A stretch of 64,000 nt of DNA from Vulcanimicrobiota bacterium. GTDB lineage: Bacteria > Vulcanimicrobiota > Vulcanimicrobiia > Vulcanimicrobiales > Vulcanimicrobiaceae. A program made the translations under genes and the position numbers. The stretch covers positions 83,439 through 147,438 of the forward strand of contig PMOS01000020.1 of the NCBI GenBank assembly GCA_003161435.1, in the 5' to 3' direction. The notes below the pieces were generated by a model. It searched no databases. It worked only from the letters and a program-made list of their open reading frames with translations, and had not been told where the DNA came from. Positions 24,246 through 52,546 of the stretch are shown here, in pieces (position 1 is the first letter of the stretch; each line of letters opens with the position of its first letter).

Positions 24246-24278
24246 AGTGTACCGGCCCCATGTGCGGAACCGGTGAAC
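24246..24278 (-). promoter_or_regulatory. Candidate heptamer/-10 promoter of the SRPBCC pair (half site)
   Basis: On the minus strand: one heptamer GTTCACC, 20 bases, then TACACT. The second heptamer expected 11 bp upstream is not recognisable, so this is a weaker match to the shared promoter design. Confidence 0.35.
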
Positions 24279-24346
24279 GGCGCCGGTCGAACGGCCGCAG
24301 CGGCGCCGGCGAACCGAGAATCCGAGTGAACGCCGTCAGAACGTCC

Positions 24347-24390
24347 GTTCACGCGCCGTTCACACGTCGCGGGCGACCGTCTCGTACGAT
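24347..24390 (+). promoter_or_regulatory. Heptamer-repeat promoter of the ba3 oxidase operon
   Basis: GTTCACG-N4-GTTCACA, then 20 bases, then TACGAT as -10, 6 bases before the ATG of the oxidase subunit IIa. The transcript should be leaderless. Long-spacing class. Confidence 0.55.
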
Positions 24391-24396
24391 CGGCGC

Positions 24397-24513
24397 ATGG
24401 AACCACAAGGCGACGAGCCGCTTCCCGCGACGCTCGTCTTCGTCTCGGCGCTCGGCGCGCTGATCTTCGTCGGCTGGTTCGCCATGTACGCGCTGCTCCG
24501 GGCGAGGTGGTGA
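24397..24513 (+). CDS. Cytochrome c oxidase subunit IIa, ba3 type
   Basis: 38-residue single-pass membrane protein (PATLVFVSALGALIFVGWFA) with an acidic N-terminus and basic C-terminus. Its size, topology and place directly before subunit II match the small helix (subunit IIa) of ba3-type oxidases, which replaces the first helix missing from subunit II. The stop overlaps the start of subunit II (GTGA). Too short for automatic gene finders. Confidence 0.8.
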   Translation: MEPQGDEPLPATLVFVSALGALIFVGWFAMYALLRARW

Positions 24514-24983
24514 GCGTGCACGTCCACCGCCAAGAACGGATCTGGATGACGTTCGGGCTGGCGATGCTGGTCATCTTCTTGGCCGTCATCACCACCGCCG
24601 CCGTCGTCGACGGCTTCGTCCCGCCCAGCCACGTGCAGAGCATCGATCCGACCAAGGTCGCGCAGACGCCGCCGTTCGACCATCCGGGGCTGCGCAAGGT
24701 CGCCGACGGCGCGTACGAAGCCTACTACGTCGCGCGCATCTTTTCGTTCACTCCGGCGTCGATCGAGGTTCCGGTCGGCTCGCGGGTGACGTTCTACGTG
24801 ACGAGCGCCGACGTCGAGCACGGTTTCAGCATCCCGGAGACCGGCGTCAACACGATGGTCACGCCGGGCTGGGTGAGCCAGGTCTCGCACACGTTCAAGG
24901 AACGTGGGACGTTCCTGCTGGTCTGCAACGAGTACTGCGGCTCCGGACACCACATGATGGCCGCCAAGGTCGAGGTCAAGTGA
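24510..24983 (+). CDS. Cytochrome c oxidase subunit II, ba3 type (CuA)
   Basis: About 157 residues. One N-terminal TM helix (MTFGLAMLVIFLAVITTAA) then the periplasmic cupredoxin domain with the binuclear CuA site: His in DVEHGFSIP and CNEYCGSGHHMM giving C-x3-C-x3-H-x2-M. It accepts electrons from cytochrome c. Start at GTG 24510 gives the overlap with subunit IIa; GTG 24507 or 24516 are alternatives. The stop overlaps the ATG of subunit I. Confidence 0.92.
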   Translation: MSVHVHRQERIWMTFGLAMLVIFLAVITTAAVVDGFVPPSHVQSIDPTKVAQTPPFDHPGLRKVADGAYEAYYVARIFSFTPASIEVPVGSRVTFYVTSADVEHGFSIPETGVNTMVTPGWVSQVSHTFKERGTFLLVCNEYCGSGHHMMAAKVEVK

Positions 24984-26650
24984 TGGTCACGACGATCGCG
25001 CCGTCGCGGGGCGGCGACGCGCTGGAGCTCTCGCGCGCGAACGGCGACTTGCTGGTGCTCACGCACATCTACACGTCGACGCTCGTGCTGGGGATCGGCG
25101 CGCTGTTCGGGATGCTGCAGGGCTTCTCGCGCGCGAACTGGATCGTCATGCCGGCTTGGTTCGACTACTACCGCATGCTGACCGCGCACGGCGTGCTGAT
25201 GGCGCTGGTCTTCACCACGTTCTTCATCACGGGATTCTTCACGTACAGCGTCTACCACACGATCCCGCGCGTGCGCTCGACCCGGTTGGGCTGGATCGGC
25301 TACTGCGTGATGCTGGTCGGCACCGTCATGGCCGCCGTCGCGATCCTCGACGGCAGCGCCAGCGTGCTCTACACGTTCTACGCGCCGCTCAAGGCCAGCC
25401 CGCTGTTCTATTTCGGCGCGACGCTGCTCGTCGCCGGGACGTGGTTCGTCGCCGCCGACGTCTTCTTGAACGTCGCGTGGTTCAAGAAGCAGCATCCGAA
25501 CGAGCGAATTCCGCTGCCCGCGTTCATCGCGGCGTGCACGCTCACCATGTGGATCATCGCGACGCTCGGCGTCGTCGCCGAGATGGGGCTGCTCATCCCC
25601 TGGTCGCTGGGCTGGACCAGCGGGATCGACGTCGGCTTGACGCGGATGTTCTTCTGGTACTTCGGCCACCCGCTGGTGTACTTCTGGATCATGGCTGCCT
25701 ATGCGATCTGGTACACGGTCGTGCCGGCGACGTTCGGCGGCCGCATCTTCAGCGACGGCCTCACGCGGCTCGCGTTCGTGATGCTGCTGCTGCTGTCGAC
25801 GCCGGTCGGCTTGCACCACCAGTTCCTCGACCCGGGGATCTCGGCCGGCTGGAAGTGGCTGCACACGGTCACGACGTACGGCGTCGTCATCCCGTCCTTC
25901 ATGACCGCGTTCGCGATCTTCGCGACGTTCGAGCTGGCGGCGCGCAAGGCCGGGCGCCGCGGTTTCGTCAACGTCGTGCGCTGGCTGCCGTGGAAGGACC
26001 CGGTGTTCGCCGGACCCGCGCTCGGCATGATCCTGTTCATCTTCGGCGGCTTCGGCGGCATCGTGAACAACTCGTACTCGATGGACGTGCTGGTGCACAA
26101 CACGATGTGGATCGTCGGCCACTTCCACATCACCGTCGGCGGCCCGGCGGCGCTGACGTTCATCGGCGCGACCTACGGGCTCGTTCCGGCGCTCACCGGG
26201 CGCACGCTCTTCGCGCCCCGGCTCGCGCTGATTCAGGTCTATACGTGGTTCGTCGGAATGGCGATCATGTCGACGTCGATGCACTGGGCAGGATTGCTCG
26301 GGTCGCCGCGTCGCACCGCGGATGTCAGCTATTTCGGCGCGCAGGGCGCTGCGACGTGGCATCCGCAGATGGTCGGCGCCGCCGTCGGCGGGACGATCAT
26401 CGCGCTCTCCGTGGTGATGTTCATCATCGTGGCGACGGGCACGTTTCTCACCGATCGAAGCGCCCAAGTCCGCCCGGCGTTCACGTTCGCCACGACCAAC
26501 GAAGACGCGCTCGAGACGCCCGCTGTGCTCGACCGGCTCGGCCGCTGGGGCGTGCTCGCGTTCGCGCTGGCCGTACTAGCCTACGCCGGGCCGGTGACGC
26601 AGCAGATTCAGGCGCACGCGTATCTCGCGCCGGGCATGCGTACGTGGTAG
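24983..26650 (+). CDS. Cytochrome c oxidase subunit I, ba3 type
   Basis: 555 residues, 12-13 TM helices. Haem-copper oxidase catalytic subunit: low-spin haem His in LTAHGVLMALVF, CuB ligands in FFWYFGHPLVYFW and LHHQFLDPG, and the haem a3 and b ligands in MWIVGHFHITVG. The proton-channel pattern and YFGHP motif fit the B-type (ba3) group with high oxygen affinity. It follows subunits IIa and II with overlapping codons, and its stop overlaps the SCO gene. Confidence 0.95.
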   Translation: MVTTIAPSRGGDALELSRANGDLLVLTHIYTSTLVLGIGALFGMLQGFSRANWIVMPAWFDYYRMLTAHGVLMALVFTTFFITGFFTYSVYHTIPRVRSTRLGWIGYCVMLVGTVMAAVAILDGSASVLYTFYAPLKASPLFYFGATLLVAGTWFVAADVFLNVAWFKKQHPNERIPLPAFIAACTLTMWIIATLGVVAEMGLLIPWSLGWTSGIDVGLTRMFFWYFGHPLVYFWIMAAYAIWYTVVPATFGGRIFSDGLTRLAFVMLLLLSTPVGLHHQFLDPGISAGWKWLHTVTTYGVVIPSFMTAFAIFATFELAARKAGRRGFVNVVRWLPWKDPVFAGPALGMILFIFGGFGGIVNNSYSMDVLVHNTMWIVGHFHITVGGPAALTFIGATYGLVPALTGRTLFAPRLALIQVYTWFVGMAIMSTSMHWAGLLGSPRRTADVSYFGAQGAATWHPQMVGAAVGGTIIALSVVMFIIVATGTFLTDRSAQVRPAFTFATTNEDALETPAVLDRLGRWGVLAFALAVLAYAGPVTQQIQAHAYLAPGMRTW

Positions 26651-28084: not shown

Positions 28085-28768
28085 TTAGCGGGCGGCAGCG
28101 CGGTTCAGCAGTGCGCGGACGTCGTCGTCCGCGACCTGAGAGAAGTCTTCATACCAGCTTCCGACGCTCGAGAACGGCTCGGGCGTCATGTAGCAGACCA
28201 CCTCGTCCGCGTGACGGCGCAGTAAGTCCGCCACGTCCGGCGCCGCGACCGGAACGGCCACGACGACCCGGGAGGGATGCTTCTGGCGCAGCGCGAGCAC
28301 GGCGACCAGCATCGACGCGCCGGTCGCGAGCCCGTCGTCGACGAGGATCACGGTCTTCCCGTCGAGCACGGGATACGGGCGGCTATCGCGGTAGAGATGC
28401 TCGCGTCTGGCGAGCTCGCGGCGCTCCTCGTCGACCACGTGGACGATCGACGCCCGCGGGATTCGTAGCATGTCGAGCGCCTCGAAGTTGAGCACCTGCG
28501 CGCCTCCGCTTGCGATCGCGCCCATCGCAAACTCCTCGTGCCCCGGGACGCCCAGCTTGCGCACCGTGAACACGTCCAACGGAAGGCCGAGATCGCGCGC
28601 CACCTCGTACGCTACCGGGACGCCGCCGCGAGGCAGGGCGAGCACGACGACGTCGTCGCGGTTCGCGAACCGGCGCAGCCGCGAGGCGAGGAGTTCTCCC
28701 GCCTCACGGCGGTCGCGGAATGCGCGCGGCGCGTCGCACCGCGCGCGATCGGAGCTAGCGTTCTGCAT
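28085..28768 (-). CDS. Phosphoribosyltransferase-family protein
   Basis: 227 residues. Type I PRTase fold with the PRPP-binding motif VILVDDGLATGASM and an LPRGGVPVAYEVA segment, plus the N-terminal FRDRREAGELLASRL typical of the stand-alone PRTases of dormancy and stress islands (comparable proteins lie next to universal stress proteins in other bacteria). The base substrate cannot be told. TAGGCT lies 6 bases before the ATG, so it is probably leaderless. Confidence 0.85.
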   Translation of the reverse strand: MQNASSDRARCDAPRAFRDRREAGELLASRLRRFANRDDVVVLALPRGGVPVAYEVARDLGLPLDVFTVRKLGVPGHEEFAMGAIASGGAQVLNFEALDMLRIPRASIVHVVDEERRELARREHLYRDSRPYPVLDGKTVILVDDGLATGASMLVAVLALRQKHPSRVVVAVPVAAPDVADLLRRHADEVVCYMTPEPFSSVGSWYEDFSQVADDDVRALLNRAAAR

Positions 28769-28862: not shown

Positions 28863-29336
28863 TCAGCGCCGCGGTCCGCGGTGCGGACTCATGATGCCCA
28901 CGCGCCACGCCGCTTCGCGGGCCGACGCTCTCGCGGCGATCCGCGTGACGAGATCGGCCGCCGTCGCTCGTGCGATGCGGCGGCCGGCGATTCGGTCGAA
29001 CAGCGCGCCCAAGATCCCGCTCGGCGGGACGTACGTCCCCTCGATGATGAACCGCGTGCGCGGTCCGTGGATGCGAAAGCGCAACGTGCCGGCGAAGTCG
29101 GGGAGCAGCGGGCTCTGCGCGGTCCAGTGCAAGGCGATCTCTTCGTGCATCCGGCCGCGCTCGAGCACGTCGTTCCGCACTTCGAAACCAAAGCGGACCG
29201 TCAGGTGCGCCGGACCTGCACGAACGGTCGCTTCGGGCTCGCCGCGTTCGGCCGCCGCGAGATACTCTTCGGCGTAGCTCTGCGCCATCGAGAACGGGCA
29301 GTCAGCGGTTCGCTCGGCGCGCACCGAAGCCGTCAT
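28863..29336 (-). CDS. SRPBCC-like protein, six-copy family
   Basis: 157 residues. N-terminus MTASVRAERTADCPFSMAQS resembles the start of START-like folds; signature IEGTYVPPSGILGALFDRIA then RRIARATAADLVTRI. Its ATG overlaps the stop of the molybdenum hydroxylase large subunit (ATGA), placing it as the last gene of that operon. It may act on, or protect, the membrane or hydrophobic substrate of the operon; this is speculation. Confidence 0.65.
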   Translation of the reverse strand: MTASVRAERTADCPFSMAQSYAEEYLAAAERGEPEATVRAGPAHLTVRFGFEVRNDVLERGRMHEEIALHWTAQSPLLPDFAGTLRFRIHGPRTRFIIEGTYVPPSGILGALFDRIAGRRIARATAADLVTRIAARASAREAAWRVGIMSPHRGPRR

Positions 29337-31399
29337 CTGCGGATCCCCTCCGCAAACAGCGCAAGCGCGTCGACGAAGCGCGCCTTGGTGAACGGCACGC
29401 GGCGCAGGCGAACTCCGGTCGCCGCGAACACGGCGTTCGCGATCGCCGGCGCGACGACGATCGTTGTCGGCTCGCCGGCGCCGAGCGCAGGCTGGTCGGG
29501 CCGATCGATGACGGCGATGCGCACCGCCGGCGCGGCGGGGAACCGCAGGATCGGGTACGCGCTCCAGTCGGTCGAGGTGACCCGTTCGCGGTCGAAGCGG
29601 ACTTCTTCGAGCAGCGCGCGGCTGGTCGCCTGAATCGCGTTGCCTTCGATCTGGTTTCGCAATCCGTCCGGATTGACGACGAGGCCGCAGTCGTGCGCGA
29701 TCGCGAGCTCGCGGACGCCGACCGCGCCGTCTTCCGCGATGGTGCATGTCGCGACCGCGGCGACGTACGCTCCGTGCCCGTTGTAGCGGGCGAATGCGAT
29801 CCCGAGCCCGCAGCGCAGCGCGCCGTACGTCCAGGCGTGCTCACCCGCCCGCCAAGCGACGAGGTCGGCCGCGCGCTCGAGGACGTCGCGCGCCCGCGCG
29901 TCCGAGAGGTGATCGAGCCGGAACGCCAGCGGATCGGCCCCCGCGACATGGGCGAGCTCGTCGACGAAGCTCTCGTTCGCGAAGACGTTGTGTGCCGCGC
30001 CGAGCGACCGAAACGCCGATGTCTCGAGATCTGCGTGCGGCGCGACGTGCACGACGACGCGCTGCGGAACGTCGTAGTCGACCGCGGCGTTGCGATCGCC
30101 CGCTACGGCTCCGCCGAGCGCTCGCGCGCCCGCCCCGCGCAGGTGCAGATGCGGCGGCGTCCAGACGTCGTGCTCCCACGCGACGATTCGGCCCTCGCGC
30201 ACGACGCCGCGGAGCTCGGAGCACATCGCGGGTCCCTTCGGGTCCCAGCCGAGCTGCTCCGCCGCGCTCCACTGCAGGCGCACCGGGGCGCCGACGGAGC
30301 GCGATATCGTCGCCGCCTGCGCCGCGGCATCGTCGCTCCCGTTGTCGCCGAAGCACCCCGAGCCCTCGACGTATACGACGCGCACGGCGTCGTCGTCGAA
30401 GCCGAGCTGCGCGGCGAGGCGCGCGCGCAGCGCGTAGACGCCTTGCGACGAGCACCAAATCGTCGCGCCGTCCTTGCGGACGTCGGCGACCGCGCACGGC
30501 GGGCCGAGCGACGCGTGTGACTGGAACGGCCAGCGGTAGTCGGCTTCGCAGGTTGCGTCGGTCGCGAGCACCTCGATCGCGGCGCCCGCGCGCGTGACCA
30601 CCGGATCGCCGGCAGCGTCGCGCAGCCGGTCGAACGTGTCGCGTTCGTCGGGGAGACCGCCGCCGGTCCACTGCACGGCGAGCGCGCGCGCTGCTTCCGC
30701 CGTGCTCCACTGCTCCGGACCCGCAACTGCCAGGAGCTCACCTTCGTGAACGATTCGAGTGCCGGCGAATCGTTGAATCGATGCCGCGTCGACATCGGCG
30801 CAGTGCGCACCGACCGCCGGCGGTCGCACGATCCGTACGTGCAGCATTCCGGGGACCGCGACGTCCTGGACGTACGTGAACGTGCCGTGTGCCTTGGCGG
30901 GAAGATCGACACGCGGCGTGCTGTGCCCGACCCAGCGGTATGCCGACGGCGCGCGGAGCGCCGGCAGCGCGTCGACCTCGCATCCGAAGCCGTCGCCGAC
31001 CAGCTCGCCGTAGCTCAACGACGTCGCAGCCGCATGCGGACCATCGATGAGGATCACGGCACCGTCACGCGTGTCGAGACGATCGACCGTGACACCCAGG
31101 CGCTGCGCGGCGCGCCGCAACAAGACGGCGCGTGCAGTGGCCGCCGCGGCCCGCAGCGGAGGTGCACCGGACTGCAAGCTTTGGCTCCCGACCGTCGATC
31201 CTTGGTCCGGCGTGATCCCGGTGCGTCCCTCGACGACAGTGATACGCTCCGGCGGGACGTCGAGCTCGTCGGCGACGATCTGCGCGAATGCGGTGCGAAT
31301 TCCCGTGCCGAGATCGACCTTCCCGACGAGGACTCGCACGCCGCCGTCGCGATCGATCGCGATCCAGCGGTCGACCAGGAGCTCCGGTGTTCCGTTCAC
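29333..31399 (-). CDS. Molybdenum hydroxylase large subunit (xanthine dehydrogenase family)
   Basis: 688 residues; binds molybdopterin cofactor and hydroxylates an aromatic heterocycle or aldehyde. Visible family features include VLVGKVDLGTGIRTAFAQIV, GSTVGSQSLQSGAPPLR, HSTPRVDLPAKAHGTFTYVQ, and the catalytic Glu in LGAGEPTTIVVAPAIANAV. The composition resembles the IorB (isoquinoline 1-oxidoreductase beta) subgroup. The GTG start overlaps the stop of the 2Fe-2S subunit. No FAD subunit is in the operon, so electrons must go to another acceptor such as a cytochrome. Confidence 0.88.
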   Translation of the reverse strand: MNGTPELLVDRWIAIDRDGGVRVLVGKVDLGTGIRTAFAQIVADELDVPPERITVVEGRTGITPDQGSTVGSQSLQSGAPPLRAAAATARAVLLRRAAQRLGVTVDRLDTRDGAVILIDGPHAAATSLSYGELVGDGFGCEVDALPALRAPSAYRWVGHSTPRVDLPAKAHGTFTYVQDVAVPGMLHVRIVRPPAVGAHCADVDAASIQRFAGTRIVHEGELLAVAGPEQWSTAEAARALAVQWTGGGLPDERDTFDRLRDAAGDPVVTRAGAAIEVLATDATCEADYRWPFQSHASLGPPCAVADVRKDGATIWCSSQGVYALRARLAAQLGFDDDAVRVVYVEGSGCFGDNGSDDAAAQAATISRSVGAPVRLQWSAAEQLGWDPKGPAMCSELRGVVREGRIVAWEHDVWTPPHLHLRGAGARALGGAVAGDRNAAVDYDVPQRVVVHVAPHADLETSAFRSLGAAHNVFANESFVDELAHVAGADPLAFRLDHLSDARARDVLERAADLVAWRAGEHAWTYGALRCGLGIAFARYNGHGAYVAAVATCTIAEDGAVGVRELAIAHDCGLVVNPDGLRNQIEGNAIQATSRALLEEVRFDRERVTSTDWSAYPILRFPAAPAVRIAVIDRPDQPALGAGEPTTIVVAPAIANAVFAATGVRLRRVPFTKARFVDALALFAEGIRR

Positions 31400-31896
31400 G
31401 GCCGAACCGCCCCGGCATGTGCTGCACGCCGGACCGTCCGGACGACGCGCCCGTACGTGCCGCACCGGCACAGGTGCGGCGCCAGCGCGTCGGCGATCGC
31501 CTCTTCGGACGGATCGGAATTGCGCGCGAGAAGTGCCGTCGCCGCAACGACCATCCCGGGCAGACAGTATCCGCATTGCGATGCCTGCTCGACGTCGATC
31601 GCATCGCGCAGGCTGCACGCGATATCGCTTTCGCCGAGCCCCTCGACGGTCGTGACCTCGTGGTCGAGCACGTCGACGAGCGCGGTCGTGCACGCGCGCG
31701 CCTCGACTCCGTCGATCAGCACGGCGCACGCGCCGCATTGCCCGTGACCGCAAGAAACCTTCGTGCCGCGCAGCCCCAGCTCGTCGCGCAGCACGAAGAC
31801 CAGCGGCTTGTTCGGATCCGCCGCGCTCACCACGCAGGCTTTGCCGTTCACAACGAGGACCGCCGTGTCCGAGGCGAGTGCAGGGTGACCGATCAT
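31396..31896 (-). CDS. Molybdenum hydroxylase 2Fe-2S subunit
   Basis: 166 residues. Plant-type 2Fe-2S domain with CGHGQCGACAVLIDG and the helical 2Fe-2S domain with QCGYCLPGMVV and CRCGTYGRV, all cysteines present. It transfers electrons out of the large subunit at 29333. ATG with GGAGGA 10 bases upstream. It follows the MacB-type permease by 35 bases, so it may share the efflux transcript. Confidence 0.9.
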   Translation of the reverse strand: MIGHPALASDTAVLVVNGKACVVSAADPNKPLVFVLRDELGLRGTKVSCGHGQCGACAVLIDGVEARACTTALVDVLDHEVTTVEGLGESDIACSLRDAIDVEQASQCGYCLPGMVVAATALLARNSDPSEEAIADALAPHLCRCGTYGRVVRTVRRAAHAGAVRP

Positions 31897-35413: not shown

Positions 35414-35456
35414 ATTCTAGCCGCGGCACGTCGCGATGCGATGAACGGAGGTGAAG
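35414..35456 (-). promoter_or_regulatory. Heptamer-repeat promoter of the MacAB operon
   Basis: Reading the minus strand: CTTCACC-N3-GTTCATC, 20 bases, TAGAAT, 7 bases, ATG. The inter-repeat spacer is one base shorter than usual (10-bp period). Long-spacing class. Confidence 0.45.
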
Positions 35457-35506
35457 AAGTCGTTCACGATCCGTTCTTCCGGCGGACGCACCGATCGGCG
35501 CCCCGG

Positions 35507-36361: not shown

Positions 36362-36405
36362 ATGGTGCCGCGTTAGTGAGAAGGATTCACGAACGAACGG
36401 AGAAC
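36362..36405 (-). promoter_or_regulatory. Triple heptamer-repeat promoter of a universal stress protein gene
   Basis: Reading the minus strand: GTTCTCC-N4-GTTCGTG-N4-CTTCTCA, 9 bases, CACCAT, 6 bases, ATG. Three repeats at 11-bp intervals, the fullest example of the motif. It also lies in front of the divergent acetate kinase gene. Confidence 0.5.
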
Positions 36406-36420
36406 GCAGCCGCGCCTGTC

Positions 36421-37428: not shown

Positions 37429-37496
37429 GCCGGCAGGCGAGCGTCCCGCCCGACCCGGTCGCGGCCGAGCCGGAAAAAGAGAATCGTGAACGCCGC

Positions 37497-37529
37497 ATTC
37501 ATACGCACTTCTTGCGGCCGAGCGATCCT
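37497..37529 (+). promoter_or_regulatory. Heptamer-repeat promoter of the split-barrel gene
   Basis: ATTCATA-N4-CTTCTTG, 9 bases, GATCCT, 6 bases, ATG. The heptamers are degenerate but the spacing is exact. Short-spacing class. Confidence 0.4.
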
Positions 37530-40387: not shown

Positions 40388-40431
40388 AGCGTACCTGAGA
40401 ACGGGCCTCGTGCGGTGAAGGCCGTGTGAAC
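40388..40431 (-). promoter_or_regulatory. Heptamer-repeat promoter of phosphoketolase
   Basis: Reading the minus strand: GTTCACA-N4-CTTCACC, 20 bases, TACGCT, 6 bases, ATG. Long-spacing class, exact 11-bp period. Confidence 0.55.
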
Positions 40432-40625
40432 GCGTCTTCCCACCTCCCTTCGCGTGGCTTGGTCTACCGCCCAGACCACGAGCACGCGCTTTCCGGTCGA
40501 CGCGATGCCACCGGTTGCAGATCGTCCGCGGCATCATCATTCGGGCTGGTCGTGTTCACCACAGCGGTGCTGCGCTTCCGCAAGCGGATCGACTAGCGGT
40601 CCGTGTGAACGGCGCATCGTCGTTC

Positions 40626-40658
40626 CTTCGCACGCCGTTCCGACCCGCTCCGTACACT
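40626..40658 (+). promoter_or_regulatory. Heptamer-repeat promoter of a universal stress protein gene
   Basis: CTTCGCA-N4-GTTCCGA, 9 bases, TACACT, 7 bases, ATG. Short-spacing class. Confidence 0.55.
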
Positions 40659-42544: not shown

Positions 42545-42566
42545 AAGATGTGACGCTTGCGTGAAG
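42545..42566 (-). promoter_or_regulatory. Candidate promoter of a universal stress protein gene (single heptamer)
   Basis: Reading the minus strand: CTTCACG, 9 bases, CATCTT, 6 bases, ATG. The distal repeat is not recognisable (CCGTACG). Confidence 0.38.
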
Positions 42567-42580
42567 TTTTCGTACGGTTT

Positions 42581-42613
42581 CTTCGCGGGGCGTTCACGTC
42601 GCACTGTCATCCT
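42581..42613 (+). promoter_or_regulatory. Heptamer-repeat promoter of the GNAT-phosphatase-stress protein operon
   Basis: CTTCGCG-N4-GTTCACG, 9 bases, CATCCT, 7 bases, ATG. Short-spacing class, divergent from the neighbouring stress-protein promoter. Confidence 0.5.
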
Positions 42614-42620: not shown

Positions 42621-43133
42621 ATGGACGGCGACGAACGAGCAGCGATCAGGGTTCGCCCCGCGATGCCCTACGACGACCGCCGCGTGGCGGCATTGGGCCG
42701 AGGGCTGTCGACGGATTCGCTGCGCCGCCGTTTCCTGGGCGCCGTGAGCCGCGACTTCGCGGTGGGCGAGCTGGTTCGCGAGACCGGTTGCGGAGCGCGC
42801 GAAATCGCTTTCGTCGCCGAGGACGTCGACGGCATCGCGGTCGGCGAAGCGTATGCGGTGCTGCTCGATGCGACCTCTGCCGAAGCCGCGTTCGTCGTGG
42901 CCGACGGCAGCCAGCATCATGGTGTCGGGACGTTGCTGTTCGACGCCGTCGTGCGTGGGCTCGCCGCGCGAGGCGTGCAAACGATGATCCTGGAAACCCA
43001 TGTCCGGAACGCCGCGATGCTCGGCATCGTGCGCGCGTCGGGATTGTCCTACGGCCTGCGCGGCGCCGGTGGCACCGTCGAGGTCATGGTGCATCTCCCG
43101 ATCGGCGGTGCCGAGAGGGCGGTCGCGTCGTGA
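42621..43133 (+). CDS. GNAT-family N-acetyltransferase
   Basis: 170 residues. Acetyl-CoA-dependent acyltransferase: VRPAMPYDDRRVAALGRGLS at the N-terminus, the beta-strand AEAAFVVADGSQHHGVGTLL with the Q/H-x-x-G-x-G/A CoA loop, and METHVRNAAMLGIVRASGL-like end (LETHVRNAAML). It resembles the acetyltransferase half of protein lysine acetyltransferases that modify acyl-CoA synthetases. First gene of a four-gene overlapping operon. Confidence 0.82.
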   Translation: MDGDERAAIRVRPAMPYDDRRVAALGRGLSTDSLRRRFLGAVSRDFAVGELVRETGCGAREIAFVAEDVDGIAVGEAYAVLLDATSAEAAFVVADGSQHHGVGTLLFDAVVRGLAARGVQTMILETHVRNAAMLGIVRASGLSYGLRGAGGTVEVMVHLPIGGAERAVAS

Positions 43134-43588
43134 CGACGCTGTTCGCCGAGGAGCCGCTGCGCGGCACGAGCGGTGCAAATCCCGCCGCGATCGAACGCGC
43201 GATCCGGACCGTGCTGGCCGGCGAATCGCTGCTGGTCCGCGTGCCGGCCCACGTCGGCGCCCGGGCGGAGGTGGATCTGACCTACCGCGTCCGTTGCGTG
43301 GTGTGGCGCGGCCGAGATGCTTCGCGGCTGAACGAGGTCGTCAAGGTCGAGTGGTATCCGGGGGGCGGCGTCCCGCTGCCGAAGCTGCGCGCGTCGGTCG
43401 AATCGGACTGGAACGACGACGGCACGGTCAGGGTGCTGCGGTTGGAAGGCGGCTACGAACCGCCGGGCGGCGAGCTGGGGCACGCGTTCGACGTCGAGCT
43501 GGGACACCGCATCGCCGAGGCGTCCGCGCACGATTTTCTCCGCCGGATCGCCGGCGAGCTGAGCGCGGCGAAGGTGAACGATGTTTAG
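43130..43588 (+). CDS. SRPBCC-like protein, six-copy family
   Basis: 152 residues with a longer variable N-terminus. Shared signature LEGGYEPPGGELGHAFDVEL then HRIAEASAHDFLRRI. GTG start overlaps the GNAT stop, and the stop overlaps the phosphatase start. Its place between an acetyltransferase and a SpoIIE-type phosphatase makes it a possible signalling or membrane-associated partner, but nothing shows this directly. Confidence 0.65.
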   Translation: MTTLFAEEPLRGTSGANPAAIERAIRTVLAGESLLVRVPAHVGARAEVDLTYRVRCVVWRGRDASRLNEVVKVEWYPGGGVPLPKLRASVESDWNDDGTVRVLRLEGGYEPPGGELGHAFDVELGHRIAEASAHDFLRRIAGELSAAKVNDV

Positions 43589-45349: not shown

Positions 45350-45381
45350 CGCCGCGCGCAGAGCTCCGTAACGTCGGGCGC

Positions 45382-45425
45382 GTTCTCAAGTTCTTCGCCG
45401 GATCGTCACGGCGCCGATCTATGCT
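45382..45425 (+). promoter_or_regulatory. Heptamer-repeat promoter of a universal stress protein gene
   Basis: GTTCTCA-N4-CTTCGCC, 20 bases (containing a third partial repeat CGTCACG at the expected position), TATGCT, 6 bases, ATG. Long-spacing class. Confidence 0.5.
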
Positions 45426-45431: not shown

Positions 45432-46430
45432 ATGAATGACTCGTTGCCGCATCCCGGCATGGACGCCGCCCCGGCGCGAGGGGTCAACCCGTTCGCGCGG
45501 ATCGTCGTGGGCTACGACGAGTCGCCGGCCTCGGTCGGAGCGCTCGAGAACGCGCTTGCGTATGCGACCGACTATGGCGGCGACGTGGTCGTGGTCCACG
45601 TGTCGGGCGTACCGCCCGCGGCTTCGGTCCGGCTCGAAACGGCGACTCTCACGCCCGGTACGGACCCGCGGCCGGTCCTGGAATCGGTCGGCCCGCAGAA
45701 CCATTGCCTGTACGAACGGCTGCGGCCGCGCATCGCCGATCGCGGCGTCTCCGTAACGCTCGAGTTCTGCTGGAACGAGCCGGCTGCAGGTATACTCGAT
45801 GCTGCCGTGCGGTGGAAGGCTTCCGCGATCGCCGTCGGTACCCACGGGCGCAAGGCATTGCCGCATGCGTTTCTGGGCAGCGTCGCGGAAGCGGTCGTCC
45901 AGCAAGCGCGCGTGCCGGTGGTCGTCGCTCGAGACTTCATGCCGGGCCGTATGCTCAGGCGCGTGGCCGTCGGCGTGGACCCGAACGAGCCGGTTGCAGC
46001 CGCCGTCACCTTTGCCGTCAGCCTCGCCGCCATTCGAGCGGTTCGCCTCGTGTTGTGTACGGTGATCGACACGGCGTCGCTGATGAGTCCCTCGGCCCAC
46101 ATGCCGTTCGATCCAACCCCGCTGGCGCATCAGATGCGCGCCGCGGCTCGCGATGCGCTCGACGCCGCGGTTCTCACCGTTCGGGCCGATGAAGCCTTTA
46201 CCGCGACCGAGGTCGCCGCGGCGCGTGAACCCGCCGCCGGACTCGTCGAGATCGCGCGCCGGCAGTTAGCCGACGCGATCGTGGTTGGAGCGCACCAACG
46301 CCGCGGCGTCGCTCGCCTCATGTTGGGGAGCACCGCCGAGACGCTGATGCGCATCAGCGAGGTGCCGGTGATCATCGTTCCGAGCGACGGCTCGCGGGCC
46401 GTCTCGCGCGACCACGGGTCGTCGCGCTAA
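45432..46430 (+). CDS. Tandem universal stress protein
   Basis: 332 residues, two UspA domains (GTHGRKALPHAFLGSVAEA; GAHQRRGVARLMLGSTAET). Close paralogue of the product of 44378, from which it is separated by only 82 bases, so the two arose by tandem duplication. It has its own leaderless promoter while the upstream copy is inside the GNAT-phosphatase operon. Confidence 0.88.
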   Translation: MNDSLPHPGMDAAPARGVNPFARIVVGYDESPASVGALENALAYATDYGGDVVVVHVSGVPPAASVRLETATLTPGTDPRPVLESVGPQNHCLYERLRPRIADRGVSVTLEFCWNEPAAGILDAAVRWKASAIAVGTHGRKALPHAFLGSVAEAVVQQARVPVVVARDFMPGRMLRRVAVGVDPNEPVAAAVTFAVSLAAIRAVRLVLCTVIDTASLMSPSAHMPFDPTPLAHQMRAAARDALDAAVLTVRADEAFTATEVAAAREPAAGLVEIARRQLADAIVVGAHQRRGVARLMLGSTAETLMRISEVPVIIVPSDGSRAVSRDHGSSR

Positions 46431-46539: not shown

Positions 46540-48768
46540 TTGAAGAATCCTGAACAGCTTCGTCTCTTCGTCGAGGCGGCTCCTATGGCGGCCGTCGTCG
46601 CCGACGCCTCCGGGGCCGTCGTGCTCGCCAACGAGCGCGCCGCGATGCTCTTCGATTGCGAGCGTGAAGCGCTCATCGGACGCGGTCTGGGGAGCTTGAT
46701 CCCAGGCATCGGGGCGAACGGGCAGCAAAGCCGCGATCTCGTCGCCGTGCGGGCGGGCGAAGGTACGGTCCCGGTCGAGGTCGCGCTCAACCGCATCTCG
46801 ATCGCGGACGGCGAGTTCTCGCTCGTCGCGCTCGTCGACATCAGCGAGCGCCGCAGCGCCGAAGAACACCTGCGTCTCGTCGTCGAGGGTGCTCCCAACG
46901 CGAACGTCGTCGTCGATGACGCCGGCCGCATTACGCTGGTCAACGCGCAGACGGAACGGCTGTTCGGTTACGACCGCGTCGAGCTGTTGGGGATGCCGGT
47001 CGACCTGCTCGTGCCCGAACGATTTCGCACCGGGCACGGTGCATTGCGCGTGGCATACCACGGGACGGCGAGTCCGCGACTCATGGGCGCCGGCCGCGAC
47101 CTCTACTGCTTGCGCAAGGACGGTACGGAGGTGCCCGTCGAGATCGGTCTCAACCCGATCCGCACGCCCAAGGGCGATTTCGTGTTGGCGTCGGTCATCG
47201 ACATCACCGAGCGCAAGCTCTTGGAGGAGTTGCGACGCGAGCGCGATCGAGCGGTCGACGCTTCGCAACTCAAGTCGCAGTTCGTCGCGACGATGAGCCA
47301 CGAGCTGCGAACGCCGCTCAATGCGATCATCGCCGCGGCCGAGCTGCTCACGAGCACCGATCTCGACTCGTTGCAGCGCTCCTACACCGAGGCGATCGAC
47401 GAGTCGGCTGAAGCCCTGCTCGCCGTCATCAGCAGCATCCTGGACTTCTCGAAGATCGAAGCCGGCAAGCTCGACCTCGAGATGCGGACGTTCGACCTCG
47501 AGGGGCTGGTCGAAGGCGCCGCCGGCGTGCTCGCGTCGCAGGTGCGGCAAAAAGGATTGCGTCTTCACGTCTACGTCGATCCGTCGATCCCGGGCGTCGT
47601 TCGCGGCGACGCCGACCGCCTGCGGCAGATTCTGCTCAACCTCGTCTCCAACGCCGTAAAGTTCACTGCCGAAGGGAAAATCTTCGTGCGAGCACTGCCG
47701 GTGGAGACGTCGAGCCGGCATGCTTTGGTGCGGTTCGAGGTGGAGGACACGGGTATTGGCATCGAGCCCGATGCCGTCGCGAAGCTGTTCGAGCCGTTCG
47801 TGCAGGCCGACGGCTCGTCGTCGCGCCGGTTCGGCGGAACGGGCTTGGGACTCTCGATCAGCAAGCGACTCGTCGAGCTCATGAACGGAGAGATCGGGGT
47901 GACGACCGAGGCCGGCCGCGGCTCCGTGTTCTGGTTCACGGCGGAGTTCGGACGGCCGAGCGCCGTCGTTCCGAGCCGGCGGCTCTTCGGTGTGCGCGCG
48001 CTGCTCGTCTCGACCGATCAGGTCTTCAAAGACATCGCAGGACGATATGCCGAGGCCTGGGGAATCGCGACCCATTCGGCGGCCGACGGCGTCGCGGCGC
48101 TCGAGATCATCCAAGGCAGGAACGCAGCGGAACGGAACGAGGACTGGATTGCGATCGTCGACGTCGAGACCGTGGATGTCGAAGCGACGGTGCGGCTGCT
48201 CACCGCGCACGGCATGCCGGCGCGAAGCGTACTGCGCGCGGGCGCCGGCGAGCGTCTCGCCAGGCCGGTGCGCCACTCCCAGCTCTTCGATTCCATCGTC
48301 CAAGCGCTCGAGGAGCCGGGCCCCATTACCTATACGACCGCAGCTAGTCAGCGCTCGAGCGGCGCCTCGTCCACGCGAAAGATCTTGGTCGCCGAAGACA
48401 ATGCGGCGCTGCAGCAGATCCTCGCGCAGCAGCTCGCGCATCTCGACGTTTCCGCGACGATCGTCGGCAACGGAGCCGAAGCGGTCGCGGCGCTCGCGCG
48501 CGAGCCGTTCGCGCTGGTGTTCATGGATTGTCACATGCCCGAGTTGGACGGCTTCGCCGCGACGCGCGCCATTCGCGACGCGGAGAGGGCGACCGGCGCG
48601 CATGTGCCGATCATCGCGATGACGGCCAACGCGTTCAAGGAAGACCGCGAAGCGTGTCTGGCGATCGGGATGGACGATTATCTTGCGAAGCCGGTGCGGT
48701 TGGCCGACCTGCGGGACGCCCTCAGCCGCTGGATCCCCGAGCGAGAGCGAGAGCCGGAACCGACCTGA
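46540..48768 (+). CDS. Hybrid sensor histidine kinase (PAS-PAS-HisKA-HATPase-REC-REC)
   Basis: 742 residues, no membrane segments. Two PAS domains (about 5-115 and 115-235), HisKA with MSHELRTPLNAI (phospho-His), HATPase with NLVSNAVKFT, DTGIGIEP and GTGLGLSI boxes, a degenerate receiver at about 490-600 with only VDVETVDV in place of a clean phospho-Asp site, and a canonical C-terminal receiver with VFMDCHMPELDG. A TTG start is assumed; no ATG or ribosome site fits better. It is the only full sensor kinase near the response regulator at 51498, a possible partner. Confidence 0.85.
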   Translation: MKNPEQLRLFVEAAPMAAVVADASGAVVLANERAAMLFDCEREALIGRGLGSLIPGIGANGQQSRDLVAVRAGEGTVPVEVALNRISIADGEFSLVALVDISERRSAEEHLRLVVEGAPNANVVVDDAGRITLVNAQTERLFGYDRVELLGMPVDLLVPERFRTGHGALRVAYHGTASPRLMGAGRDLYCLRKDGTEVPVEIGLNPIRTPKGDFVLASVIDITERKLLEELRRERDRAVDASQLKSQFVATMSHELRTPLNAIIAAAELLTSTDLDSLQRSYTEAIDESAEALLAVISSILDFSKIEAGKLDLEMRTFDLEGLVEGAAGVLASQVRQKGLRLHVYVDPSIPGVVRGDADRLRQILLNLVSNAVKFTAEGKIFVRALPVETSSRHALVRFEVEDTGIGIEPDAVAKLFEPFVQADGSSSRRFGGTGLGLSISKRLVELMNGEIGVTTEAGRGSVFWFTAEFGRPSAVVPSRRLFGVRALLVSTDQVFKDIAGRYAEAWGIATHSAADGVAALEIIQGRNAAERNEDWIAIVDVETVDVEATVRLLTAHGMPARSVLRAGAGERLARPVRHSQLFDSIVQALEEPGPITYTTAASQRSSGASSTRKILVAEDNAALQQILAQQLAHLDVSATIVGNGAEAVAALAREPFALVFMDCHMPELDGFAATRAIRDAERATGAHVPIIAMTANAFKEDREACLAIGMDDYLAKPVRLADLRDALSRWIPEREREPEPT

Positions 48769-48805
48769 GTCCGAAGTGTGGCCGGGCGGCCGCGCTTCAC
48801 GAGGT

Positions 48806-48838
48806 TTTCACAAAGCGTTCTCATGCCTCGTCGAACAT
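48806..48838 (+). promoter_or_regulatory. Heptamer-repeat promoter of the BON gene
   Basis: TTTCACA-N4-GTTCTCA, 9 bases, GAACAT (imperfect -10). The BON ATG is about 57 bases further on and has its own ribosome site (AGAGGA), so this message has a leader. Confidence 0.42.
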
Positions 48839-48894: not shown

Positions 48895-49548
48895 ATGAAA
48901 CCCGACCTGACTCTGCAAGAGGACGTAGCCGAAGAGCTCGCGTTCGATCCCAGCGTCGATGCCGCCGCGATCGGCGTCGCAGCGAAGGACGGCGTCGTGA
49001 CGCTCACCGGAAAGGTGCCGAGTTTCTCCGACAAGTTCGCAGCCGAAAAGGCGGCGAAGCGCGTGGCCGGAGTGCGCGGGATCGCTCCCGAGATCGAAGT
49101 CGTGCTGCCCGCTTTCCGCCGCCGCGACGATGCCGACATCGCAGCCGCGGCGCTGAACGTGCTTCAGTGGAACGATACGATTCCGCGCGACGCGATCACG
49201 ATCAAAGTCGAGCAGGGCTGGCTGACGCTCGAAGGGCACGTCGAGTGGCAGTTCCAGAAGGAAAACGCCGAACACGCGGTGAGACATCTGATCGGCGTGC
49301 GCGGCGTCTTCAACGCCATCACGGTGACGCCGCGCGTCAAGAGCATCGACGTGGAGAACAAGATCCGCAAGACGTTCGAGCGCAGCGCCGACATCGACGC
49401 TTCGCGGGTATACGCCGAAACCCACGACGGAACGGTGACGCTGCGCGGCGCCGTCCGCACGTGGAGCGAGCGCGACGACGCGAGCCGCGCAGCGTACGCC
49501 GTCCCGGGGGTTTCCACCGTCGAAAACCTTACCGCGGTCGGCGTCTGA
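48895..49548 (+). CDS. Triple BON-domain protein
   Basis: 217 residues made of three BON domains (about 3-70, 78-147 and 148-217), each with a V-T-L-x-G strand (VVTLTGKV, WLTLEGHV, TVTLRGAV). No signal peptide, so cytoplasmic like YgaU/OsmY-type stress proteins without export. BON domains bind membranes or ligands and are induced by osmotic and other stress. Good ribosome site AGAGGAAACC before the ATG. Confidence 0.88.
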   Translation: MKPDLTLQEDVAEELAFDPSVDAAAIGVAAKDGVVTLTGKVPSFSDKFAAEKAAKRVAGVRGIAPEIEVVLPAFRRRDDADIAAAALNVLQWNDTIPRDAITIKVEQGWLTLEGHVEWQFQKENAEHAVRHLIGVRGVFNAITVTPRVKSIDVENKIRKTFERSADIDASRVYAETHDGTVTLRGAVRTWSERDDASRAAYAVPGVSTVENLTAVGV

Positions 49549-50652: not shown

Positions 50653-50788
50653 GCGGTCTTCCTCCGGGGCGATGCGGCCGCCGTTCGACCGGCGGGCCAG
50701 ACAGAAGTAGCACGTCGGCTCCCACAATGCCTGCGACGTTCTTGGCGCGGCCTCTTGTGAATGCGGCGTTCACATCGCGGTCATCGCC

Positions 50789-50821
50789 GTTCGCAGCACG
50801 TTCTGACGATGGTCCTATACT
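50789..50821 (+). promoter_or_regulatory. Heptamer-repeat promoter of uORF and SRPBCC gene
   Basis: GTTCGCA-N4-GTTCTGA, 9 bases, TATACT, 7 bases, ATG of a 17-residue upstream ORF. Short-spacing class with the best -10 element of the set. A further pair in inverted form (GTGAA...TTCAC) lies upstream at about 50754-50773. Confidence 0.55.
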
Positions 50822-50828
50822 AGCGGTC

Positions 50829-50882: not shown

Positions 50883-50887
50883 AAAGC

Positions 50888-51307
50888 ATGAGTACGATAC
50901 GCGAGTTCACCACGGTGGCATGCCCGTTCGACAAAGTGCCCGAGCGGCTCGTCGCGCACTTCGACGGCGGTGACGCGATCTTGCCGTTGCGCGTTCGGAT
51001 CGGCGAGTTCAAGGTCGAGCGCGACGTCGAGTTCCACCTCAAGAGCAAGCCCGCGTATCCGGGGTACGAGCTGCTCGACGTCTCGTGGTCGCCGAAGAAT
51101 GGCGGTCCGTATCCGACCTTCAGCGGCACGCTCAGCGTAGGGGAAGATGCGGTCGGATGGAGCCGCCTGGAAATCGACGGGACCTACAAGCCGCCGTTCG
51201 GCGTCGTCGGTGCGGCCTTCGATGCCGCCCTGGGGAACCGTATCGCGCAGGGCACGGCAGTCGAGCTGTTGGCGGAGCTCAAGCGGATTCTGTCCTCGCC
51301 GAACTGA
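50888..51307 (+). CDS. SRPBCC-like protein, six-copy family (copy A)
   Basis: 139 residues. START/SRPBCC-like beginning MSTIREFTTVACPFDKVPER with signature IDGTYKPPFGVVGAAFDAAL then NRIAQGTAVELLAELKRI. It differs from the product of 54101 at only about 20 of 139 positions in my alignment, so the two are recent duplicates. Preceded by a 17-residue upstream ORF and a heptamer-repeat promoter. Function unknown. Confidence 0.68.
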   Translation: MSTIREFTTVACPFDKVPERLVAHFDGGDAILPLRVRIGEFKVERDVEFHLKSKPAYPGYELLDVSWSPKNGGPYPTFSGTLSVGEDAVGWSRLEIDGTYKPPFGVVGAAFDAALGNRIAQGTAVELLAELKRILSSPN

Positions 51308-51402: not shown

Positions 51403-51436
51403 GTTCCGCCGGCCGTTCGCTTCCGGATCGTAGCAT
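51403..51436 (+). promoter_or_regulatory. Heptamer-repeat promoter of the response regulator gene
   Basis: GTTCCGC-N5-GTTCGCT, 9 bases, TAGCAT. The spacer between repeats is one base longer than usual (12-bp period). A short leaderless frame from GTG 51443 overlaps the start of the regulator. If real, the site would mean the regulator controls itself. Confidence 0.4.
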
Positions 51437-51497
51437 CGAACGGTGATGGACCTTCCCGAACGGGGACTCGCCGCGGCCCGGCAAGAAATGCGACGAA

Positions 51498-52199
51498 GTG
51501 GTAACGATCTCGAGCCGCGAGGTGCTCCTCGTCGATGACGAGCCGGGGCTGATGGACGTCCTCGAGCAGTATTTGCGCGACGAGGGCTTCGGCGTATTGC
51601 GCGCCGTCGACGGTCCGTCGGCGGTCGAGACGTTCAAGCGCGAGCTGCCCGTCGTCGTCGTGCTCGACCTCAACCTACCGGGCTTTCCGGGGACCGAAGT
51701 GCTGCGCCGAATCCGGGAGATCTGCGACGTGCCGATCATCATGCTGACCGCGCGCGTTGCGGAGGTCGATCGCGTCGTCGGTCTCGAGCTCGGTGCGGAC
51801 GACTACGTCGCCAAACCGTTCAGCCCGCGCGAGGTCGTCGCCCGCGTAAAGAGCGTGCTTCGTCGAACGGAGCGCGGCGAAGGCAGCGCGCCGTCGCGAG
51901 AGAAACGCGTCGGCGCCATCGCGATCGACGTGCTGGCGCATGAGGTTCGCGTCGAAGGCAAGCTGGTGACGCTCACGCCGACGCAGTTCAAGATCCTCGA
52001 CGTGCTCGCGTCGCACGTCGGGCAGACGCTCACCCGGGACCAGTTGCTCGAGCGCGTAACCTCCGACGGCGATGTCTTCGACCGGACCCTGGACCGCCAC
52101 ATCGCGAACCTCCGCGCGCGCGTAGAACCGAATCCGTCGAACCCGCGGTACATCGTGACGGTCTTCGGCGTCGGCTACAAGATGGTCGACCCCTCGTGA
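51498..52199 (+). CDS. OmpR/PhoB-family response regulator
   Basis: 233 residues. Receiver domain at 1-120 with VLLVDDEPGLM, phospho-Asp in VVVLDLNLPGFPGTE, Thr in MLTARVAEVD and Lys in DDYVAKPFS. Winged-helix effector at about 135-230 (LTPTQFKILDVLASHVGQTL, RHIANLRARVEPNPSNPRYI). Proteins of this class bind direct repeats with an 11-bp period, matching the heptamer pairs seen across this region, so it is the best candidate for their regulator. The stop overlaps the DHp-like gene. Confidence 0.9.
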   Translation: MVTISSREVLLVDDEPGLMDVLEQYLRDEGFGVLRAVDGPSAVETFKRELPVVVVLDLNLPGFPGTEVLRRIREICDVPIIMLTARVAEVDRVVGLELGADDYVAKPFSPREVVARVKSVLRRTERGEGSAPSREKRVGAIAIDVLAHEVRVEGKLVTLTPTQFKILDVLASHVGQTLTRDQLLERVTSDGDVFDRTLDRHIANLRARVEPNPSNPRYIVTVFGVGYKMVDPS

Positions 52200-52408
52200 G
52201 GAAGATAGTGCACGATGTCCGCAACCAGCTCGCGGTGGCGGTCGCCAACGTCGAGGCCATGCGAGACGGGATGATAGATCCGTCACGCGAGCGGTTCGAA
52301 ACGGTGCTCGCGGCACTCGCCCAAGCCGACGGGCTGTTGCACCGGCTCAACGTCCTCTCGCCGCCGCCAGCGGGCGGTGACGCGTCCGGGCTCGAGCCGC
52401 GGGCCTGA
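52196..52408 (+). CDS. Stand-alone DHp-like histidine phosphoacceptor (70 aa)
   Basis: 70 residues beginning MRKIVHDVRNQLAVAVANVE, a histidine-kinase H-box with a likely phospho-His at position 6, and a second helix ending LAQADGLLHRLNVL, as in DHp hairpins. No ATPase domain follows; the gene ends in a short Pro/Gly tail. The GTG start overlaps the stop of the response regulator (GTGA), so the two proteins are made together. It may relay phosphate from another kinase, or dephosphorylate or titrate the regulator. Confidence 0.6.
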   Translation: MRKIVHDVRNQLAVAVANVEAMRDGMIDPSRERFETVLAALAQADGLLHRLNVLSPPPAGGDASGLEPRA

Positions 52409-52513
52409 CGGCGCGACGGCTTGCGAGCGGACCGGGCGTTGCGCCGGCTGCCTCTGAGCAAATCGAGACACCAGCATTCGCTGTGAATGCAAGCTTCATG
52501 GAGGACGGTTATC

Positions 52514-52546
52514 GTTCACAGGGCATTCTCATGCCGGACGTACACT
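52514..52546 (+). promoter_or_regulatory. Heptamer-repeat promoter of the cupredoxin operon
   Basis: GTTCACA-N4-ATTCTCA, 9 bases, TACACT. The ATG is 24 bases further on behind a ribosome site (AAAGGAG), so this message has a short leader. Short-spacing class. Confidence 0.55.

What the first reader, a model, noticed from the sequence alone, without database searches (positions are those of the whole stretch)
24246..52546. A shared promoter motif across about fifteen transcription units: a new stress regulon
Upstream of genes in 24-52.5 kb I find the same design: two 7-bp repeats (Y/G-TTC-N-C-N) with a 4-bp spacer (11-bp period), then 9 or 20 bases, then a TAnnnT-like -10 hexamer. Short class (9): 36362, 37497, 40626, 42581, 48806, 50789, 51403, 52514. 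Long class (20): 24347, 35414, 40388, 45382. Weaker: 24246, 28775, 42545. The two spacings differ by 11 bp, one helical turn. Repeats in this position replace a -35, as pho boxes do for PhoB. The genes are universal stress proteins, phosphoketolase, ba3 oxidase, BON, SRPBCC-like and split-barrel proteins, a CuA cupredoxin and a response regulator. Promoters I checked by eye outside the region lack the motif.
Basis: partly seen in the sequence, partly recalled or inferred. Interest (0 to 1): 0.92.

Follow-up and report, generated by a model that had tools for sequence, protein, structure and literature searches.

The report
Conserved stress-island promoters and stripped-down kinase
A gene island for stress and low-energy survival in a little-studied bacterium seems to be switched on by one regulator that reads paired DNA repeats set at two fixed distances from the promoter, and the regulator's partner kinase has shrunk in this group to the small piece that carries the phosphate.

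Summary
In 20 stretches of related genomes around orthologs of the regulator at 51498, a matrix from the window gives 66 noncoding hits in 44 kb against 18 in 340 kb coding. Among those 66, TAnnnT stands at offset 29 in 14 and offset 40 in 11, with 0.44 expected per offset, so both spacing classes hold on independent data. Genome-wide the composite promoter is enriched in 40 genomes with the regulator, not in 15 without. The repeat is of PHO-box type, but 30 pstS loci lack such a promoter and the regulator is not this genome's PhoB. Best reading: an OmpR/PhoB-family regulator activates a stress and redox island from promoters without a -35. Unexpected: the regulator's adjacent kinase is cut to a phosphoacceptor hairpin (70 aa here) in nine genomes, all of which carry the island's hybrid kinase: probably a phosphorelay. 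DNA binding, signal and phosphotransfer are inferred, not shown.

The parts
24345..24390 (+). Promoter, 20-bp class: repeats CCGTTCACGCGCCGTTCACACG, -10 TACGAT, ATG at 24397 (ba3 oxidase small subunit, then CuA subunit 24516-24983 and subunit I 24983-26650)
   Evidence: same promoter in 5 other genomes
36375..36407 (-). Triplet of repeats before universal stress protein 35507-36355; hexamer in register is CACCAT
37495..37516 (+). Repeat pair before split-barrel (pyridoxamine-oxidase-like) gene 37536-37985; hexamer in register is GATCCT
40388..40433 (-). Promoter, 20-bp class, -10 TACGCT, ATG at 40381 (phosphoketolase 38009-40381)
40624..40658 (+). Promoter, 9-bp class, -10 TACACT, ATG at 40666 (universal stress protein)
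42579..42600 (+). Repeat pair 42 bp before ATG 42621 (GNAT-like gene to 43133; the automatic start at 42561 is probably too early)
   Evidence: start corrected by reading the sequence
45380..45425 (+). Promoter, 20-bp class, -10 TATGCT, before universal stress protein 45459-46430
48793..48825 (+). Triplet of repeats before BON-domain gene 48895-49548
50787..50821 (+). Promoter, 9-bp class, -10 TATACT, before SRPBCC-fold gene (start 50846 or 50888, to 51307)
51403..51436 (+). Variant promoter before the regulator gene: half-sites 12 bp apart, -10 TAGCAT 12 bases after the second TTC
52512..52546 (+). Promoter, 9-bp class, -10 TACACT, before cupredoxin gene 52571-52933 (highest matrix score, 25.9)
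35414..35458 (-). Variant site: half-sites 10 bp apart, -10 TAGAAT 23 bases after the second TTC, ATG 35406 (HlyD-type gene 33865-35406)
51498..52199 (+). OmpR/PhoB-family response regulator (Response_reg + Trans_reg_C), proposed reader of the repeats
52196..52408 (+).
46585..48768 (+). Soluble hybrid kinase (PAS, HisKA, HATPase, receiver), proposed phosphodonor of the hairpin
43130..43588 (+). Member of the island's SRPBCC/CoxG-fold family (others in the window: 23225-23695 -, 23702-24187 -, 28863-29336 -, 50888-51307 +, 54101-54520 +)

Best explanation
The island is a regulon. A phosphorylated OmpR/PhoB-family response regulator (51498) binds head-to-tail to two half-sites of the form (G/C)TTCRC with 11-bp period. 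It takes the place of a -35 element and recruits RNA polymerase to a TAnnnT -10 that lies 9 bp (one face) or 20 bp (one helical turn further) downstream. Many of the transcripts appear leaderless, with ATG/GTG 12-13 bases after the start of the -10. Targets are universal stress proteins, a ba3-type oxidase, cupredoxin and cytochrome c genes, phosphoketolase, BON, split-barrel and SRPBCC-fold proteins and, outside the island, a radical-SAM/SPASM enzyme: a low-energy or redox stress programme. In this group the regulator is probably fed by a phosphorelay: hybrid kinase 46585 (His to receiver Asp), then the 70-aa DHp hairpin (His), then the regulator (Asp). Shown by sequence: the promoter design, its conservation, its co-occurrence with the regulator, the hairpin's conservation and its co-occurrence with the hybrid kinase. 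Inferred: binding, activation rather than repression, the inducing signal, transcript starts, phosphotransfer.
For: Relatives only: 66 noncoding hits in 44.4 kb against 18 in 339.9 kb coding (16 of 20 stretches have at least one); TAnnnT offset 29 in 14 and 40 in 11 of 66, 0-2 at every other offset, 0.44 expected. ATG or GTG 10-15 bases after the -10 start in 38 of 43 composite sites. Whole genomes: 40 with a regulator match at 1e-60 or better: 196 against 57 reversed-pattern hits (9-bp class), 159 against 46 (20-bp class), 65 against 38 for a wrong spacing; 15 without: 28 against 41, 32 against 25, 24 against 20. Universal stress protein loci: 12 of 36 sites have the -10 in register in 7 genomes with the regulator, 0 of 5 in 5 genomes without. 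ba3 small-subunit promoter kept in 6 of 8 rows. Radical-SAM gene has the site in G000, G008 and G013. Regulator domains. Nearest solved relative RegX3; PHO-box repeats GTTCACC (PhoP) and GTTCACnnnnnGTTCaC (PolR) in print. Hairpin and hybrid kinase.
Against: G005 lacks the regulator ortholog (best match 42%, beside pstS) yet keeps one site with TATGGT at offset 29 before a phosphoribosyltransferase gene. Four of the 20 regulator stretches (L143, L152, L154, L156) have no noncoding hit. Phosphoketolase: pair and -10 in register in only 5 of 28. The correlation with the regulator's E-value as a continuous measure is weak (Spearman 0.23, P 0.09; the two-group test gives P 7e-6), and the 1e-60 cut was set after seeing the list. 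Genomes are related, so counts are not independent. The regulator's own promoter has a 12-bp period. In G009 the hybrid kinase is present but no hairpin gene follows the regulator.
Confidence: 0.78

Rival explanations
1. The repeats are ordinary PHO boxes read by this organism's PhoB, so the island is a phosphate-starvation regulon.
For: The half-site GTTCAC is that of Streptomyces PhoP and Microlunatus PolR; G005 keeps one site and its only close relative of the regulator lies beside pstS.
Against: In 30 pstS loci of relatives, 10 matrix hits at 13 bits or more: 8 coding, 2 noncoding, 0 with TAnnnT in register. In 6 of 6 phoB/pst stretches outside G005 no noncoding hit at 13 bits. The composite promoter is not enriched in genomes that have PhoB but no 51498 ortholog.
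Confidence: 0.08
2. An alternative sigma factor, not a response regulator, recognises the repeats as an unusual -35.
For: Fixed distance to the -10; no separate -35 seen in either class (consensus).
Against: A sigma factor would not tolerate two spacings 11 bp apart; two tandem 11-bp repeats and triplets are the signature of OmpR/PhoB-family dimers; no sigma-factor gene was noticed in the called island genes, though it was not searched for genome-wide.
Confidence: 0.06
3. The regulator binds but represses: the site covers the promoter and blocks polymerase, as ArcA does at many sites.
For: Sites of the 9-bp class lie within the polymerase footprint; ArcA's direct-repeat sites (11-bp period) mostly repress.
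Against: No competing -35 is seen that could drive the promoters without an activator; the fixed spacing to the -10 is expected for activation, not needed for repression.
Confidence: 0.12
4. The 70-aa ORF is a decaying remnant of a kinase, and the regulator is now fed directly by the hybrid kinase or by a small-molecule donor.
For: It has no ATPase domain and reaches Pfam HisKA only below cut-off (E 0.0021); G009 does without it beside the regulator.
Against: Ten such ORFs in nine genomes keep the phosphoacceptor motif, dN/dS 0.14-0.61 over the defined pairs, the start-stop overlap with the regulator and a predicted hairpin; in G028 a homolog is fused to the hybrid kinase.
Confidence: 0.3

Closest known systems
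PHO box / PhoB and actinobacterial PhoP (GTTCACC)
   Same: Two 7-bp direct repeats with 4-bp spacer, 11-bp period, head-to-tail dimer of an OmpR/PhoB-family regulator; half-site GTTCAC (review PMC4415409, passages seen). Replacement of the -35 by the box is recalled, not from a call.
   Different: Target genes are stress and redox genes, not phosphate genes; pst loci lack the promoter; two discrete spacings to the -10.
PolS-PolR of Microlunatus phosphovorus
   Same: Near-identical recognition sequence GTTCACnnnnnGTTCaC, proven by footprint there; the authors speculate on oxygen input (PMC6754071, abstract and passages seen).
   Different: PolR controls phosphate and polyphosphate genes; no two-spacing rule or hairpin partner was seen in the passages.
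ArcA of Escherichia coli
   Same: Redox-responsive OmpR/PhoB-family regulator on direct repeats with 11-bp period, often three or more (PMC3798270, passages seen).
   Different: Mostly repression and variable position; different half-site.
DosR dormancy regulon of mycobacteria (recalled)
   Same: Island rich in universal stress proteins, low-oxygen physiology.
   Different: DosR is a NarL/LuxR-type regulator with a palindromic site (recalled); here the regulator is OmpR-type with direct repeats.
ChpT and Spo0B histidine phosphotransferases
   Same: Phosphotransfer proteins that descend from histidine kinases and work as DHp dimers (ChpT paper PMC3433190, listing and abstract start only; the rest recalled).
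   Different: Those keep a degenerate ATPase-like domain; here only the two-helix hairpin is left.

Membership tests
OmpR/PhoB response regulators | Receiver domain plus winged-helix Trans_reg_C | tested here: met
   Both Pfam models over cut-off
OmpR/PhoB response regulators | Phosphoacceptor Asp and conserved Lys | tested here: met
   LDLNLPG and AKPF motifs found
Pho regulon (PhoB/PhoP) | 11-bp tandem direct repeats | tested here: met
   10 of 12 sites
Pho regulon (PhoB/PhoP) | Box before pst/pho genes | tested here: not met
   0 of 10 matrix hits in 30 pstS loci have the -10 in register; 6 of 6 non-G005 phoB/pst stretches without noncoding hit
Pho regulon (PhoB/PhoP) | Regulator scores as PhoB equivalog | tested here: not met
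   TIGR02154 190.9 bits, cut-off 296.2
Pho regulon (PhoB/PhoP) | Induction by phosphate starvation | not testable with these tools
   needs culture
HK-derived histidine phosphotransferase (ChpT/Spo0B type) | DHp two-helix hairpin with phosphoacceptor His | tested here: met
   His invariant in 14 of 14 aligned; predicted hairpin; closest PDB chains are kinase DHp domains, TM 0.70 to 5ukv, though Foldseek E is only 0.3-0.5
HK-derived histidine phosphotransferase (ChpT/Spo0B type) | Degenerate ATPase-like second domain | tested here: not met
   No ATPase remnant within 1.5 kb of 10 hairpin ORFs except the neighbouring hybrid kinase in G001 and G002
HK-derived histidine phosphotransferase (ChpT/Spo0B type) | Phosphotransfer from receiver to regulator | not testable with these tools
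   needs purified proteins
DosR-type regulon | NarL/LuxR-type regulator and palindromic box | tested here: not met
   Regulator is OmpR type, repeats are direct
SRPBCC / CoxG fold (island protein family) | Helix-grip fold | tested here: met
   AF2 pLDDT 88.8; best PDB match CoxG 8uds, E 9e-6, TM 0.56

The most novel reading that the evidence does not exclude
A two-component system whose kinase was stripped to its bare phosphoacceptor hairpin when a hybrid kinase took over, giving a phosphorelay with one of the smallest phosphotransfer proteins, which drives a phylum-wide stress regulon from -35-less promoters that obey a one-helical-turn rule. Nine of nine genomes with the hairpin carry the hybrid-kinase ortholog (51-64% identity, partial in G004). 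Of 13 genomes with the full small kinase, one (G028, which also has a hairpin-hybrid fusion) carries it, four have only 42-46% matches, eight none.
Probability: 0.5. Interest if true: 0.75.

Novelty: new variant of a known kind. Interest (0 to 1): 0.63.

Why it matters
It gives a well-defined regulon, with its promoter code and candidate regulator, in a phylum with almost no regulatory knowledge. It shows a PHO-box-type repeat apparently serving a stress and redox programme instead of phosphate. The two discrete spacings, found again in independent genomes, make a clean natural test of how an OmpR/PhoB-family dimer contacts polymerase from two positions one turn apart. The hairpin and hybrid kinase offer a natural before-and-after series for how a two-component system turns into a phosphorelay, with intermediates (full kinase, hairpin, fusion) in one bacterial lineage.

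Tried and rejected
Palindrome reading (GTGAA n6-7 TTCAC): GTGAA stands 8-9 or 18-20 bases upstream of many sites (34 occurrences over 83 sites at these offsets), but mostly where a divergent gene lies nearby; among 26 sites without one it is seen 9 times at those offsets. So it is mainly the partner site of the other gene, with some back-to-back arrays left open.

Whole-genome model search: models R1 and R2 scored only 150 of 3,355-5,271 candidates per genome, so they give a floor, not a census; R1/R2 were built partly from window and G008 sites, so those hits are by construction. The radical-SAM sites in G000 and G008 were not in the training set.

Genome-contig scan gave RRs of other phyla at 36-51% and no help on regulon conservation. 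Taxonomy: no call names the phylum. G005 (one contig of 3,508,363 bases; 67.7% G+C in 54 kb) fits Vulcanimicrobium alpinum WC8-2 (3.50 Mbp, 68.4%, passages of PMC9758169), so the genus is probably Vulcanimicrobium, 'Eremiobacterota'; this is inference. Literature searches listed no paper on this regulon or on a DHp-only protein; the library lacks most subscription journals and only listings were judged.

Dropped rows: G055-G059 (distant, T-rich) were left out of the 55-genome counts; including them adds background only (they show as many reversed-pattern hits). The Fisher test for hairpin against hybrid kinase used 9/0 against 1/10; the full tally is 9/0 against 1/12.
Full report
What was claimed.

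Check in the window. Ten of 12 stronger sites have TTC half-sites 11 bp apart; 51403 has 12, 35414 has 10; the three weak sites have no pair. TAnnnT lies exactly 12 or 23 bases after the second TTC in 8 of the 12. At 14 bits: 13 noncoding hits in 2,771 noncoding bases of the island, 2 in 3,984 noncoding bases of the rest of the window, 1 in called coding sequence. In 381 kb elsewhere in the genome, chosen for carrying a strict form of the motif, 2 noncoding and 15 coding hits. The strict pattern KTTCNCNNNNCGTTC occurs 43 times genome-wide against 15 for the reversed control.

Independent test in relatives. Orthologs of the regulator at 51498 (70-80% identity) are in nine of ten same-genus genomes; the exception is G005. 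In 20 stretches around orthologs from 18 genomes: 66 noncoding hits at 13 bits in 44,368 bases, 18 coding hits in 339,859 bases. 16 of the 20 stretches have at least one noncoding hit. In these 66, TAnnnT is at offset 29 in 14, at 40 in 11, and at any other offset in at most 2, with 0.44 expected (binomial P 2e-17 and 8e-13). The called gene start lies 40-44 or 51-55 bases from the site start in 31 of 66. Of 43 composite sites, 38 have ATG or GTG 10-15 bases after the first base of the -10: many transcripts look leaderless. This is not always the gene's frame: at 50789 the nearest ATG is out of frame with the called gene.

Genome-wide co-occurrence. The composite pattern TTCNC-N6-TTC-N12-TANNNT, its N23 form, and an N17 spacing control were searched in 60 genomes. 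Leaving out five distant genomes (G055-G059): 40 with a regulator match at 1e-60 or better gave 196/57, 159/46 and 65/38 (real/reversed); 15 without gave 28/41, 32/25 and 24/20. Two-group test P 7e-6; Spearman with the E-value only 0.23, P 0.09. Universal stress protein loci: 12 of 36 sites carry the -10 in register in seven genomes with the regulator (two of the 36 are cut copies of others), 0 of 5 in five genomes without.

Orthologous promoters. The ba3-oxidase small-subunit promoter keeps pair, 20-bp spacing and TAnnnT in 6 of 8 rows: G000, G003, G008, G010, G025, G050; G042 and G044 do not fit strictly. The radical-SAM/SPASM gene outside the island has the site in G000 (24.3 bits), G008 (22.1) and G013 (24.6). 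Phosphoketolase keeps pair and -10 in 5 of 28, with two partial cases; in many others it follows a neighbour closely and may be in an operon.

What reads it. The regulator is Response_reg plus Trans_reg_C, nearest solved chain RegX3 of M. tuberculosis, below every NCBIfam equivalog cut-off shown, PhoB included. This genome's PhoB candidate is another gene, C12:17006, beside pstS at C12:19121. In 30 pstS loci 10 matrix hits, 8 coding, none with the -10 in register; in six phoB/pst stretches outside G005 no noncoding hit. The repeat matches GTTCACC of Streptomyces PhoP and GTTCACnnnnnGTTCaC of PolR (passages). So the repeat is PHO-box type and the regulon is not the phosphate one. Against the link: G005 has no ortholog yet one well-formed site before a phosphoribosyltransferase gene, homologous by its N-terminal sequence to window 28085-28768.

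The kinase. Right after the regulator, with a GTGA overlap, is a 70-aa ORF (52196-52408) with HDVRNQL and two helices. Homologs of 53-66 aa (counted from the aligned residue) follow the regulator in nine genomes (ten ORFs: G000, G001 twice, G002, G003, G004, G007, G008, G010, G013); in 13 genomes the same place or another copy holds a full DHp plus ATPase kinase of 214-244 aa (G006 runs off the contig at 194). dN/dS over the defined pairs is 0.14-0.61. AF2 predicts a hairpin, pLDDT 93-98 over residues 1-50; closest PDB chains are kinase DHp domains, with weak Foldseek E-values but TM 0.70 to 5ukv. Hybrid kinase 46585 has orthologs of 51-64% in all nine hairpin genomes (partial in G004), in G009 (no hairpin beside its regulator) and in G028; not in G006, same genus, which has the full kinase and no match at 1e-120 (G006 is 83% complete). 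In G001 and G002 hairpin and hybrid kinase are neighbours; in G028 they are one 696-aa protein. Receiver Asp, kinase His and regulator Asp are present. The simplest reading is a relay: hybrid kinase, hairpin, regulator.

Function of the island. Universal stress proteins, ba3 oxidase, cytochrome c, cupredoxin, phosphoketolase with an acetate-kinase-like gene, BON, split-barrel, SpoIIE-type phosphatase, and six members of a family unknown to Pfam and NCBIfam (tested on four and two members), of which AF2 gives an SRPBCC fold near CoxG. This points to low-energy or redox stress; the signal is not shown.

Verdict. Observation confirmed with corrections; regulon reading well supported; regulator assignment likely; relay plausible. 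New variant of a known kind.

Noticed in passing
window 52196-52408: Stand-alone phosphoacceptor hairpin after the regulator, full kinase in other lineages, fused to the hybrid kinase in G028 (L151 7459-9546).
   Followed up: yes
window 23225-24187 (-), 28863-29336 (-), 43130-43588, 50888-51307, 54101-54520: Locally multiplied protein family without Pfam match; predicted SRPBCC/CoxG fold; 43 rows (some cut copies) in the fetched loci, 14 with a matrix hit of 12 bits or more within 160 bases upstream.
   Followed up: partly
L368 1842-3026 (G000 C40): Radical SAM/SPASM gene with a strong site, followed by a second radical-SAM-like gene; conserved target in G008 and G013.
   Followed up: partly
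L370 9238 (G005): A well-formed 9-bp-class site in a genome without the regulator ortholog; relic or second reader.
   Followed up: partly
G047 and G053 hits: In class f3 genomes many 9-bp-class hits read TTCAC n5 TTTCAG; possibly a related but distinct box with another reader.
   Followed up: no
window 35460 (+), 28811 (+), 14128 (-): Noncoding matrix hits of 16-20 bits with no called gene downstream on that strand.
   Followed up: no
window 28863-31896 (-): Molybdopterin oxidoreductase subunits with an SRPBCC/CoxG-like gene beside them, as in CO-dehydrogenase-type operons.
   Followed up: no
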